A stretch of DNA of 64,000 bases from Sanghuangporus weigelae. Taxonomy: Eukaryota; Basidiomycota; Agaricomycetes; Hymenochaetales; Hymenochaetaceae. Positions within the stretch are counted from its first letter, which is position 1. Each line of letters opens with the position of its first letter. The translations under genes were made by a program, and so were the position numbers. The stretch is taken from positions 186,001 through 250,000 of the forward strand of contig CP137324.1 in NCBI GenBank assembly GCA_033182465.1, read 5' to 3'. Below the pieces are notes generated by a model that was not told the DNA's origin, did no database searches, and saw only the letters and a list, made by a program, of their open reading frames with translations. Positions 16,343 through 50,258 of this stretch are shown here, piece by piece.

Positions 16343-17390
16343 AGTGAACATGGCCTGCTAAACACGGATCGCTTGGAGGTTATGATTACAAATAGATCGT
16401 TTATATAGATTGCGTCAATGTGACTTTTCGACCTGACATCCACTCCCCATATTACAGGCGATTGATTCATGAGAGGAAGCCTGGTCTACTTCAAATTGTC
16501 ATCGAGAGAATCGGTATTTCTACCGTGAGACTTCAGTAATTACAACTCCGAGCTCTCGTACGTCGACACGTGAACGTATTGTAATTTGTTTTTTTCTCAC
16601 ACACATCTTTCAAGTTCGCAGGTCGTGGTAAGCCAGGTGCAGCCGAAGATAACAGTGCTTTGGATAAAAGGATGAACATCTTTCTTACTCATGCTGAATA
16701 CTGCAAGATCGCATCAACTAGTCTGCTTCAGTTTGCCGTGCCGTCTTTTGCACCAAACTTTGGATCTCTCCCGCGACTGATAACCTCCAATAACATGAGT
16801 ACACGAGTTGGTCTCTCTGCCAAGCCCTTCTTTACGCCTTCTTCCACATGGAATTTCACAGTTGCGAGACGGTGATGACGCACGATCCCAGAGAATTCTT
16901 CCCGACTTCTTGCTATTATAGGAGTTCTTATCATGGCAAGCAGAATTCGCGTGCAAACCGATTGCGTATCATTCTTTCGACGCCTTTCCAAGTGCTCTTT
17001 TGGAAAACTTCCTCTGCTCTTATCAAAGCTCATCCACGGGATTGCGTGTCTCGATCAGAAATGGAACAGATTTCCTCCGAGCCACTGCGTGCCGATGCAT
17101 GAAGGAAACGGGATTGATATTTATTTTAGTCGGAAAGCAATACGCCACGGCTTTGGAGAAGCACTCGCTTGTGTATTCTATGCATGCCTCCTAATTTTAC
17201 CCTTGTCTGACCTTGTGCTCAGCGTTCCTCAGTCTCTTCGAGGAGCATGCTGCTTCAGAGGTAGATTCTCACCAAGGTCTAATGATAATCTTTTACTTGG
17301 CCAGCCTTCATAAAGCTGGTTCTCAGGAAGTGCTCTGCTGTCAGACCTGAAGGATCTCCTGGCATTTCGTCAAGCAATTACACCGTCATC
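16343..17390. other. Intergenic region, promoter of the fungalysin gene
   Basis: About 1 kb between GUA1 and the metalloprotease. Several short open frames occur, but none has good codon character or splice partners. The last 150 bases should include the protease promoter. Nothing else recognised. Confidence 0.45.
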
Positions 17391-20300
17391 ATGGTCATCT
17401 TTACCTATCTCGCTCTAGCAGCACTTTTGCTGACTTCTACGCTCGCTGCACCCTGGCCTGCATCCATTAAGCACGCAACCCACCAAGTTAGGAGCTTGCC
17501 GAATGGTATTGAGGTGTCGACTTTCAGTCCACCGTCTCAGTTCGAGGTTTGTGCCAATGTTATCTCCAATGCCCGATTCTCAAGACCATATATGTTCACA
17601 GATCTTCGGAACGGGTATTGATCATCCGTTTTCCAGAAGGGCAGAACCTGCAGATATAAACGATATTTCTGTATCGTTCGTATCCTCTCGACTCGGGATA
17701 AGCGAGGATGAAATCTCCTTCAAGAAAGCATTCACTGGCCAAACCGCAAAACATGCTTTCTTAAAGCAGAAGATTGTATGTTTGATACTATACTTTGACG
17801 CAATGCTTGCTAATCGAAAAGTTGCTAGGATGGTATTGAAGTTGCAAACGCGGTTGCTAACGTTGCTCTCAATTCCGATGACAAAGTCGTCACATTCGGC
17901 GCCAACTTTGTTAAACCTAGTACGGCTGAAGGTCTCTTCTAGGTATGCCTGTCGAGCTGACATGGCGTAGAGAGCGTTTCTTCGACAGAACCGAAGATTT
18001 CCGTGGATCAGGCCATTGCGGCGGCCGAGCAACGCCTAGGCGGAGCTCACAATGAGATCCCGACCAGTCTTGAGTTTTATGTAAAGGACGACAACAGCGC
18101 CGTTCTTACCCATGTCGTACAAGTTGAGAGTGACCATCTGCTTGAGGCATTTGTTGATGCGGAGTCTGGGGAGGTCATTGCCGTGAACGATTTTACGGCT
18201 GACTCGGCGGTGAGTTCTATGCTATACTGGTTCACAAACAGTTTACGGAGACAACGGTTCTTTGCAGTTTCTTGTGATTCCAATCAATTTACAGGATCCT
18301 AGGGATGGGCAACAAGTAATTGAGAATCCCGAAGATCTTGCTGCTTCTCCCGACGGATGGAACACAGGATCCACTGGTACTGCGTACGTAGAGCAAGCCA
18401 TTCGCAGCTGTCGCATCACTTACTTCTCATACCTAGTGGGAACAATGTCATTTGTGAGCTACTAATGCTTGATTTAAACTCAAATCGCTCAATTCCGCTT
18501 AGCTTTCAGGCGTTCTCAGTCCTCCATCACTCAAGAATCATCGTCGGGACTAGTATTCAATTATCCTGCCGATGATACGATTGCACCTACGGCTGGTACT
18601 AATATTGATGCCGCCCGTACGAATGCCTTCTATGGTGAGGTATCAGTCTAATAAGAGAAATCGGATACTTATGTCTTCCGTAGTGTCCAACACAGTACAT
18701 GTAAGTCTTTGCTCCGATCTTTCCTGGAACGGTTTGATAACGGCTCCATAGGATATTACCTATCGTTACGGTAAGTTTCCTGGTCTTTCGTAATCATGAT
18801 AGCTTATATTTCGACCTACGGCAGGATTTACGGAGTCTGCCTTCAACTTTCAGAACGACGATTTCGGAAATGGCGGAGTCGGTAACGACCGCGTAACTAT
18901 TTCCGTTCAAGACACTGCCGGTACGTTTGTGAATTTTTTGCGACCTCCATTCTAAATAAATTGATCTTGCACTCTCAGGAACGAACAACGCAGACTTTAC
19001 GGTAAGTGCATATTTGTTTATGCAAACAACTTAGGAAGCTAGGCTGATGCCTAACAGACTCCACCCGAGTAAGCGCGGATATATGCATAATAGTCTGCGC
19101 GTTTCTGATGTTTCGTTCGTCCAGTGGTCAATCAGGTAGAATGCGGTAAACCTGTTTCCAAAAATGTTTGTAGTTGTGCGTTAGCTGATGATACTTTCAG
19201 TATGTTCCTTTGGACTTTCGTGAGTTGCCTTCATTGAGTCTACTATTTGTATCACATTTACTAATTGGCTTGACCTGAATTTATTCGGGATCAGACGAAT
19301 GTATGTCTTAACTTCGTCTACTGCTGCTTTTACCAAGCAAACTCTTTCTTCTTTCTAGCCTCAGCGTGATGGAGCTCTTGAGAATGATATCGTCGCACAT
19401 GAAAATACACACGGATTGTCAAATCGCCTCACTGGAGGCGGTACTGGACGGTCAGCAGCTTCCGTTCTCCAATTTTGATCTGGTCTTGGACTGAATCCTC
19501 GTACATCGTGACAAGCTGCCTTCAAACCAGAGAATCTGGAGGCATGGGCGAGGGCTGGTCCGATGCTTTTGCAGAATGGACTGAACAGACAGCTGACATC
19601 CGTGATTTCACACTGGGGAGGTGCGTATCCTTTGAGTCTCTACCATTCATTACAGCCATAGTAATCATAGTTTCTATTGTTCAAGCTATGTAACAGATGA
19701 TCCTGCCGGTACGTACAGATGGTTTTGAACATAACGTCGGCACGCACGCAGTACAACTGAAAAGAGACTTACCAGGCATTCGCTCTGTCCCCTATAGCAC
19801 AAATAAGTGGGTCCCCGCATTTTCTAAAGGGGACATCGTTCTAATATGGAATTATGCATAGGAACGTTAATCCACTTATGTACTCGGACTTGCAGACACG
19901 TACTGAAGTCCATGGTCCGTGTTTTCATCCGTATTTATTCGTCTACAACTCGTTTATGCTGTGATGCCTTATAGACATCGGAGAGATCTGGGCGACGATC
20001 TTGCACGATGTTCTAGCAGCTCTTGTTGATGCACAGTAAGCTATACTCTGGGCCATGCCACTTGGAAGAACAAATTGACATGGTTCCTCAAATTAGCGGT
20101 TTCTCAACAGAGGCGAACACCAATCCTGAGTAAACTTTGTTCATAATGCCAAAGGATGCTACTTCGCTAACTTTCCTGTCAGCGGCACCGAAGGCAACGT
20201 TGTCTACCTGTACTACTTCTTTATCATGCGTTAATTGAGTATATATACTCATCCGCAAATTTCAGGCACTTGTTCGTCGATCAGCTCGCGCTGCAACCGT

Positions 20301-20521
20301 GCAACCCGACGTTCCTCCAAGCACGCGACGCGTGGATCCAAGCAGACGTCAACAGGTTCAACGGAGCAAATGGGTGTTTGCTTTGGCGTGTACGTCCTAG
20401 TTACTATTTCAGACTACGTCAGTGATAATCATCAAAAAACCTGTAGGCTTTTGCTGGTCGTGGACTGGGCGTCAACGCTGCTAATCACGAGGATGATGCT
20501 ACAATTCCATCCGATTGCTAG
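17391..20521 (+). CDS. Secreted M36 metallopeptidase (fungalysin)
   Basis: Zinc endopeptidase, secreted as a proenzyme. I trace 25 exons: 17391-17546, 17602-17775, 17829-17919, 17989-18209, 18268-18383, 18437-18453, 18503-18634, 18684-18700, 18752-18770, 18825-18920, 18979-19001, 19058-19068, 19125-19145, 19201-19219, 19295-19300, 19359-19450, 19516-19620, 19686-19708, 19776-19806, 19862-19914, 19975-20035, 20097-20129, 20183-20209, 20266-20389 and 20447-20521. They give 1743 bases, or 580 residues. A signal peptide ([19 protein letters not shown]) is followed by the fungalysin/thermolysin propeptide region (around [16 protein letters not shown]) and the catalytic domain. The catalytic domain has the HExxH motif HENTH (about 387-391) and the third zinc ligand Glu in GMGEGWSD (about 416). 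A 6-base exon encodes Thr-Asn. All splice sites used are GT..AG. Nothing suggests inactivation. Confidence 0.95.
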
Positions 20522-20714
20522 GCATAGATTCAGCTTAGAGGGAAGGAGAGAAGGGCGCGAAGGCATGCAGAATTAGACCAAGAATCGTCCAGCATGTTGT
20601 TTTCATTTTCAGTGGAATGAGAATCAATTATGAGGCTAAAGCCATGAACCACTTCTGACGCTTGCGAGCGGAAGTTCGGGTGAATTTCCAGATCCAGAAA
20701 GTCCTTTTTCACAG

Positions 20715-20840
20715 GCACCTTTTCACCGACCAATTCGCGCCGCAGCCATGCCATCCGACACTCCTGCAAACACGCAATGCGTAGATCCAGGCGGATGTCA
20801 ATAGATACCGGTGCAAATAGTTGCTTACTCTGACGTGTAC
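20715..20840 (+). pseudogene. Relic of a second fungalysin copy (exon 24 equivalent)
   Basis: This stretch aligns base for base with exon 24 of the intact fungalysin just upstream (20266-20389), with about three quarters of positions matching by eye. It includes a preserved acceptor (ACAG just before 20715) and the donor-side GTGTAC at the end. In the matching frame it reads HLFTDQFAPQPCHPTLLQTR, against [20 protein letters not shown] in the intact gene. The Trp codon that follows has become TAG, and a 2-base deletion a little later shifts the frame. Neighbouring exons of the copy are not recognisable. It is best read as the eroded remainder of a tandem duplication. Confidence 0.85.
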
Positions 20841-21591
20841 ATCTTCTTTACCTTATCCTTTCATTCGTACGTGACAATGTTGGCACATTGTCCATCCAAG
20901 GCTTTTAAGTACTTTTAGGGAGACGAGGCCTAAGGTGATTTCGGCTTGGGTTGAACGAAATTCGAGAGCCGACTTTCAATACCTCTCTTGGCAAGGCAAG
21001 GATCAAGATCAGGAAAACATGTTTTACATGCGTTCGTGCGGCGCCGGAATTGTATATGATGCTCGTGTCGTGTCGATTGTCATAACACATATGCTAAGTA
21101 AGAAAACAAATTGTAAGCAAGTAAGCATCAACCAATCCCGAACTGATCAGTATCGGAGGACAACATACGTATATCCATGCAATTCGAAGAAATTAAAATG
21201 AACTACGACAAAGGGGTAAGAAAGAGAAGGGGTGTAAGGATAAGAACAGGGAAATGAGGAATAAATGTGTGGAGTAGAGTTCGCATCTGTCCGAGTTCAT
21301 GAAAAAGCAACTGTCGAGTAAGCATGTACACGTTGCAACAGCAACCTGAGGGAGTCTGTCCATGTATGAAACACCAATCCCAGCATCAATCAAATAATAT
21401 GTAGTCCGTTTGTGCCGCAACAGCTGATACAGCGCAACATCCGACTTCGGCTTCGGCCAGCTGGATGCATGTTGTGTCAAACTGTTCCGCAGTGTCGACA
21501 GGACTTGCCAAGCACCGATTCAGGATCGATCGAACCTCTCTTGTGTCCCTCATTTGCAACAGCCGACAAAACCTGACAGATCGTGCCGATA
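20841..21591. other. Intergenic region, no gene seen
   Basis: About 750 bases between the protease relic and the secreted protein's 3' end. The open frames here are short and unconvincing. Base 20900 onwards has six bases matching the start of fungalysin exon 25 after an AG, too little to extend the relic. Confidence 0.4.
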
Positions 21592-49710: not shown

Positions 49711-49978
49711 TTGTGCGTGTAATTCGGACTCGGACTCGGGCATGAAATGAGCGAAATGAATGAAATGAAAAAAAGGGCATATGAACCCAATCCAGTGTGC
49801 ACGCGAGTCCGAAACAAAAGTCAAGTTCGGTTCGGTTCGTCAGACGGTCGGGACGGACGGACGGTCAGGACGGTCGGGACTCGGCTCAGAAAAGAAGAAA
49901 TGAATCCATTTCATGTTCGTATTCGTATTCGTATTCAACTAATAATACACACGAAAAGAAAAGATTCCTTGCTCCGAG

Positions 49979-50258
49979 TTCAAGTTCAAGTCCAAGTCCG
50001 AGTTCAGGTTCAAGTATCAAGTCCAAGTCCAAGTCCAAGTTCAGGTTCAAGTATCAAGTCCAAGTCCAAGTCCAAGTTCAGGTTCAAGTATCAAGTCCAA
50101 GTCCAAGTCCAAGTTCAGGTTCAAGTATCAAGTCCAAGTCCAAGTCCAAGTTCAGGTTCAAGTATCAAGTCCAAGTCCAAGTCCAAGTCCAAGTCCAAGT
50201 CCAAGTCCAAGTCCAAGTCCAAGTCCAAGTATCAAGTATCAAGTATCAAGTATCAATT
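49979..50258. repeat. Compound minisatellite: 37-mer, 6-mer and 7-mer arrays
   Basis: Copies of a 37-base unit start at 50011, 50048, 50085, 50122 and 50159. Each is built from CAAGTATCAAG plus three TCCAAG hexamers and TTCAGGTT. The last copy runs into ten perfect CCAAGT hexamers (50171-50230) and then four ATCAAGT-type heptamers (50231-50258). The flank 49979-50010 holds degenerate hexamers. Because 37 leaves a remainder of 1 on division by 3 and no unit holds a forward-strand stop, all three forward frames stay open. Confidence 0.95.

What the first reader, a model, noticed from the sequence alone, without database searches (positions are those of the whole stretch)
19295..19300. A 6-base internal coding exon in the fungalysin gene
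Between exon 19201-19219 (ending ..WTF) and exon 19359-19450 (starting PQRDG) lies ACGAAT, flanked by AG on its left and GTATG on its right. Including it gives WTFTNPQRDG, which fits the (T/S)xPxRDG block that precedes HExxH in M36 peptidases. Skipping it would also keep frame and delete two residues two codons before that block. An exon this short is hard to define with normal exon-definition rules, so it is either a remarkable constitutive microexon or a switch between two protease forms.
Basis: partly seen in the sequence, partly recalled or inferred. Interest (0 to 1): 0.8.

Follow-up and report, generated by a model that had tools for sequence, protein, structure and literature searches.

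The report
Six-base exon in mushroom protease gene
A protease gene of a medicinal mushroom appears to contain an exon only six bases long; comparison with related enzymes indicates that its two amino acids belong to the normal protein, although a deposited protein record for this gene leaves them out.

Summary
ACGAAT at 19295-19300, between AG and GTATGT, fits as exon 15 of 25 in an intact 586-residue fungalysin (M36) gene, 17391-20521 (+). Without Thr-Asn the model is identical to a deposited Sanghuangporus weigelae protein (P0001, ACEPAI_7326). Of the 120 listed homologs (best of 1424 hits) 116 have both residues, TN in 57 and TS in 50. So do 4 of 4 solved catalytic chains and the genome's second M36 gene, where the stretch is one exon. 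Of 32 open splice products, inclusion fits a homolog profile best: 990.2 bits against 978.7 for skipping. I read it as a constitutive microexon missed by annotation. The Coniferiporia weirii record P0004 lacks the same two residues, which suggests an older exon missed there too. The 'switch' idea has no positive support, but the weak acceptor before the exon (19th of 24) would allow some skipping. No cDNA was available. A 6-bp exon is already reported among Phanerochaete P450 genes (PMC1184071): new member of a known kind, modest interest.

The parts
17391..20521 (+). Fungalysin (M36) gene, 25 exons, 586-residue product
   Evidence: Own model, intact frame; equals P0001 except for Thr-Asn.
19201..19219 (+). 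Exon 14 (19 nt), ends ..MFLWTF, phase 0
19220..19294 (+). Intron 14 (75 nt, GTGAGT..CAG): longest of the gene's 24 introns, donor ranked 18 of 24, acceptor 19 of 24
19295..19300 (+). Exon 15, the 6-nt microexon ACGAAT = Thr-Asn
   Evidence: residues present in 116 of 120 listed homologs
19301..19358 (+). Intron 15 (58 nt, GTATGT..TAG), donor ranked 12 of 24, acceptor ranked 1 of 24
19359..19450 (+). Exon 16 (92 nt), PQRDGALENDIVAHENTHG.., carries the HExxH zinc motif

Best explanation
ACGAAT is a constitutively spliced 6-nt coding exon of a secreted fungalysin metallopeptidase, most likely of Sanghuangporus weigelae. It supplies the Thr-Asn of the conserved W-x-x-[TS]-x-P-x-RDG segment, 13 residues before the HExxH zinc motif. 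Shown: the sequence, frame and splice signals, the near-universal presence of the two residues in listed relatives, and their absence from one deposited protein that is otherwise identical to the model. Inferred: that mature mRNA includes the exon, and how it is spliced. The likeliest route is intron definition, with the 58-nt intron 15 (strongest acceptor of the gene) removed first, so that ACGAAT becomes the 5' end of a 98-nt exon, and the weaker 75-nt intron 14 removed second (order about 0.55). The deposited skip form is most likely an annotation error.
For: Inclusion is the best of 32 open products of 424 enumerated splice paths, 990.2 bits against 978.7 for skipping. 116 of 120 listed homologs have both residues, T first in 114, N second in 58. 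4 of 4 PDB catalytic chains align through the segment without a gap, with P0003 as query. The second M36 gene reads WNTAQPYRDG inside one exon. The model minus Thr-Asn equals P0001 letter for letter. Only 1 of 20,000 shuffles holds a comparable site. Skipping would need a 139-nt intron; the gene's introns are 49-75 nt.
Against: No cDNA. P0001 and P0004 lack the residues. The acceptor of intron 14 is weak (19th of 24) and so is its donor (18th of 24). The profile was built from rows that have the residues, so it measures fit to the family, not what the cell makes. BRAKER3 can use RNA-seq, and the paper does not say outright that none was used.
Confidence: 0.9

Rival explanations
1. Regulated switch: the exon is included in some conditions and skipped in others, giving two functional fungalysins that differ by two residues.
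For: In frame either way; weak acceptor of intron 14 beside the strongest acceptor of the gene at intron 15; fungal precedent of a regulated 20-nt microexon (PMC11121469).
Against: The two residues are present in 116 of 120 listed homologs and in 4 of 4 solved catalytic chains; no RNA evidence of two forms; the records lacking exactly these residues are two deposited proteins, P0001 and P0004.
Confidence: 0.06
2. The deposited record is right: one 139-nt intron (19220-19358) is removed and ACGAAT is never coding.
For: P0001 and P0004 are deposited in this form; the profile score stays high, 978.7 bits; the Pfam M36 score of P0001 is 475.8 bits.
Against: 11.5 bits worse than inclusion; deletes two near-universal residues; intron nearly twice the longest of the gene; a coincidence of site and residues occurs in 1 of 20,000 shuffles.
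Confidence: 0.02
3. A longer version of the exon, 19295-19315, using a downstream donor at 19316 and giving TFTNVCLNFPQRDG.
For: Second in the enumeration at 979.5 bits.
Against: 10.7 bits below the 6-nt exon; adds four residues that the listed homologs do not have there; the GT at 19316 is not among the ten best-scoring GT of the region, whereas 19301 ranks third.
Confidence: 0.01

Closest known systems
Microexons of Phanerochaete chrysosporium P450 genes (PMC1184071; passages seen)
   Same: Basidiomycete genes with many small introns and exons; shortest exon given as 6 bp (2 aa)
   Different: Other gene family; the passages do not say whether the 6-bp exon itself is backed by cDNA
Conserved plant microexons of 15 nt or less (PMC8831610; start of abstract and passages seen)
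   Same: Tiny coding exons that are conserved and often missed by annotation; reads over a 1-nt exon were not mapped by STAR without its annotation
   Different: Plants, with RNA-seq and RT-PCR proof; none available here
Trichoderma Xlr2 20-nt microexon switch (PMC11121469; abstract, outline and section 2.4 seen)
   Same: Fungal microexon missing from a gene model
   Different: Condition-dependent by RNA-seq, 20 nt, in a transcription factor of an ascomycete; no sign of regulation here
Fungalysin M36 enzymes with solved structures, 4k90, 7z6t, 7qfy, 7qp3
   Same: Same family, same segment length before HExxH
   Different: Only the proteins were compared; their gene structures were not

Membership tests
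Peptidase family M36 (fungalysin) | Peptidase_M36 domain above the Pfam cut-off, with propeptide motifs | tested here: met
   Draft product containing the microexon: PF02128 475.6 bits (cut-off 23.3), FTP 25.0 (21), PepSY 25.2 (24)
Peptidase family M36 (fungalysin) | HExxH zinc motif (motif recalled) | tested here: met
   HENTH in exon 16
Coding microexon | Very short internal exon between canonical splice sites | tested here: met
   6 nt, CAG before and GTATGT after, introns of 75 and 58 nt
Coding microexon | Encoded residues conserved in the family | tested here: met
   116 of 120 listed homologs; 4 of 4 PDB catalytic chains
Coding microexon | Presence in mature mRNA | not testable with these tools
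   No cDNA or RNA-seq reads held; four short unnamed contigs with 104-312 nt beside the frame carry the residues, but their sample type is not shown
Coding microexon | Exon boundaries conserved in related genomes | not testable with these tools
   No genomic DNA of relatives reachable; only protein gaps in P0001, P0004 and P0007
Regulated (switch) microexon | Condition-dependent inclusion, or both forms conserved | tested here: inconclusive
   P0001 and P0004 lack exactly the residues, but both are deposited protein records; RNA not testable

The most novel reading that the evidence does not exclude
The 6-nt exon is conserved across Hymenochaetaceae and partly skipped, so that the fungus secretes two fungalysins differing by two residues before the catalytic motif; the weak intron-14 acceptor set against the very strong intron-15 acceptor would tune the ratio.
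Probability: 0.06. Interest if true: 0.6.

Novelty: new member of a known kind. Interest (0 to 1): 0.3.

Why it matters
It shows how a conserved stretch can vanish from a deposited protein because a 6-nt exon is hard to call: the deposited product of this gene lacks two near-universal residues close to the zinc motif. The run of five exons of 23, 11, 21, 19 and 6 nt, separated by introns of 55-75 nt, is a compact natural test of how small an exon basidiomycete splicing tolerates. If cDNA confirms it, it argues for homology-guided re-annotation of tiny exons in mushroom genomes, as was done in plants.

Tried and rejected
Switch hypothesis: I looked for skip forms among the 120 listed homologs. 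P0001 and P0004 lack exactly the two residues, P0007 lacks a longer stretch and P0105 lacks eight residues. All four are deposited protein records, so I did not take them as evidence of a second form.

Transcript evidence from short contigs: I hoped that the close relative P0003 (contig of 3243 nt) was a transcript, but 1482 nt remain beside its reading frame, enough for all introns of a gene like this one (1370 nt here), so it cannot be called one. Of the ten lgn/jgi proteins compared, P0009, P0030, P0067 and P0082 leave only 104-312 nt and carry both residues; they look like spliced sequence, but the type of sample is not shown and they are only 58-60% identical.

Structure: AlphaFold models of P0002 (with the residues) and P0001 (without) had pLDDT below 50 over residues 323-382 and 324-385, which hold the segment; no conclusion drawn.

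Second copy in the genome: a DNA search with 19125-19620 found only itself (the tool skips very common words). A repeat scan of 17300-21000 gave no family of 25 bases or more.

The searches used the draft, which contains the microexon. A phrase search for '6 bp exon' with 'basidiomycete' listed no paper. Searches that could have shown a published description of this exon; none of the titles or abstract starts listed named it, and the library holds open-licence papers only.

Intron conservation in Coniferiporia and S. sanghuang is inferred from protein gaps alone.

Full report
Gene and organism. The window is G000:C7:186001-250000 of a 33.87-Mb genome in 13 contigs. The fungalysin gene runs 17391-20521 on the + strand with 25 exons, 24 GT-AG introns of 49-75 nt, and an intact 586-residue product. 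Removing Thr-Asn from the final product gives exactly the 584 residues of P0001, ACEPAI_7326 of Sanghuangporus weigelae. A published S. weigelae assembly has 33.96 Mb in 13 contigs (PMC10803629, start of abstract in listing).

The microexon. ACGAAT at 19295-19300 stands between CAG and GTATGT, with a 75-nt intron before it and a 58-nt intron after it, both phase 0. Exons 11-15 are 23, 11, 21, 19 and 6 nt long, and 12 of 25 exons are 33 nt or shorter. The 6-nt exon is thus the extreme of a pattern in this gene.

Are the two residues part of the family? In an alignment of the window draft product with the 120 listed homologs, 116 of 120 have both residues: TN 57, TS 50, TT 6, SN 1, TD 1, SS 1. 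Without both are P0001 (S. weigelae), P0004 (Coniferiporia weirii), P0007 (S. sanghuang) and P0105 (Hohenbuehelia grisea). The listing shows the best 120 of 1424 hits among 7997 scored candidates, so more distant members were not counted. The four catalytic PDB chains found align through the segment without a gap when P0003 is the query; a fifth hit, a 215-residue chain of 4k90, matches only propeptide residues of the query. The second M36 gene of the same genome, on C11, reads WNTAQPYRDG inside one uninterrupted frame.

Splice-path test. I enumerated every path of zero, one or two introns (GT or GC to AG, 40-160 nt) between 19201 and 19450: 424 paths, 32 distinct open in-frame products. They were scored with a profile of 113 homologs; 8 of 121 rows were dropped beforehand (the window and the four rows lacking the residues; P0005, an abnormal 829-residue record; P0024 and P0075, which have extra residues before this segment). 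Inclusion of ACGAAT came first at 990.2 bits; the 21-nt version 979.5; skipping 978.7. The profile was built from rows that have the two residues, so the test asks which product fits the family, not which one is made. In 20,000 dinucleotide shuffles of the 139-nt stretch, 78 had an AG-6-GT coding [TS][NSTD], and 1 had it with both sites scoring as high as the real ones.

Why the record lacks it. The paper whose ACEPAI locus tags match annotated structures with BRAKER3 --fungus; its annotation section names no RNA data (PMC12001456, section 11 read), and 'RNA-seq' occurs in its text only in the title of the BRAKER3 reference (passages). That does not prove that none was used. The other S. weigelae paper combined AUGUSTUS, GeMoMa and PASA transcript predictions (PMC10803629, passages); I could not identify its model of this gene. 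P0001's two-residue gap is best read as a prediction error. [quoted passage not shown]

Age. The Coniferiporia record P0004 lacks exactly the same two residues, which suggests that its gene also has both flanking introns, so the microexon may predate the split of these genera. P0007 runs from DFT directly to PQRDG, as if exons 12-15 (57 nt, in frame) had all been passed over. Fomitiporia P0002 has TS; how its gene is split there is unknown. These are inferences from protein gaps.

Mechanism. Leave-one-out matrices from the gene's own introns rank the acceptor of intron 15 first of 24, its donor 12th, the donor of intron 14 18th and its acceptor 19th. Both introns hold YTNAY branch-like sites; intron 15 has no CTRAY. 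Skipping would need a 139-nt intron, nearly twice the longest of the gene. The likeliest route is that intron 15 goes first, merging ACGAAT with exon 16, then intron 14; six bases can hardly carry complexes for both neighbouring sites at once (reasoning from general knowledge, not tested). This order is inference (about 0.55). The weak acceptor of intron 14 beside the strong acceptor of intron 15 is the best argument that some skipping might occur; such a product would lack two near-universal residues 13 residues before HExxH and is expected, not shown, to be impaired.

Known precedents. In the Phanerochaete chrysosporium P450 genes the shortest exon is given as 6 bp, and microexons of 2-10 codons are said to be spread over the families (PMC1184071, passages). 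A 20-nt switch microexon is described in Trichoderma (PMC11121469, section 2.4). No listing or 49 named this fungalysin exon. The finding is a new member of a known kind.

Limits. No RNA. Splice-site matrices come from one gene. Structure predictions were too uncertain in this segment to be used.

Noticed in passing
19058-19068: Exon 12 of the same gene is only 11 nt (ACTCCACCCGA, TPPD) and, unlike the 6-nt exon, is kept in P0001.
   Followed up: partly
20712-20851: Fragment downstream of the gene, 104 of 142 aligned positions (73%) identical to 20263-20404 (start of exon 24 into intron 24), with 2 gaps; a family match there has one stop. Looks like a decayed partial duplicate of the 3' end.
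   Followed up: partly
protein P0007 (Sanghuangporus sanghuang), against window exons 12-15 (19058-19300): The deposited S. sanghuang protein (501 aa) runs from ..NNADFT directly to PQRDG, as if the four tiny exons (57 nt in total) were missed; other parts of it are also irregular.
   Followed up: partly
proteins P0024 and P0075 (Pleurotus), P0105 (Hohenbuehelia): P0024 and P0075 carry extra residues between GxMR and FLW, and P0105 lacks eight residues there: possible unspliced or missed short pieces at the place of intron 13 and exon 14.
   Followed up: no
49973-50244: Array of about 7 copies of a 37-bp unit, also seen as about 42 copies of a TCCAAG hexamer.
   Followed up: no
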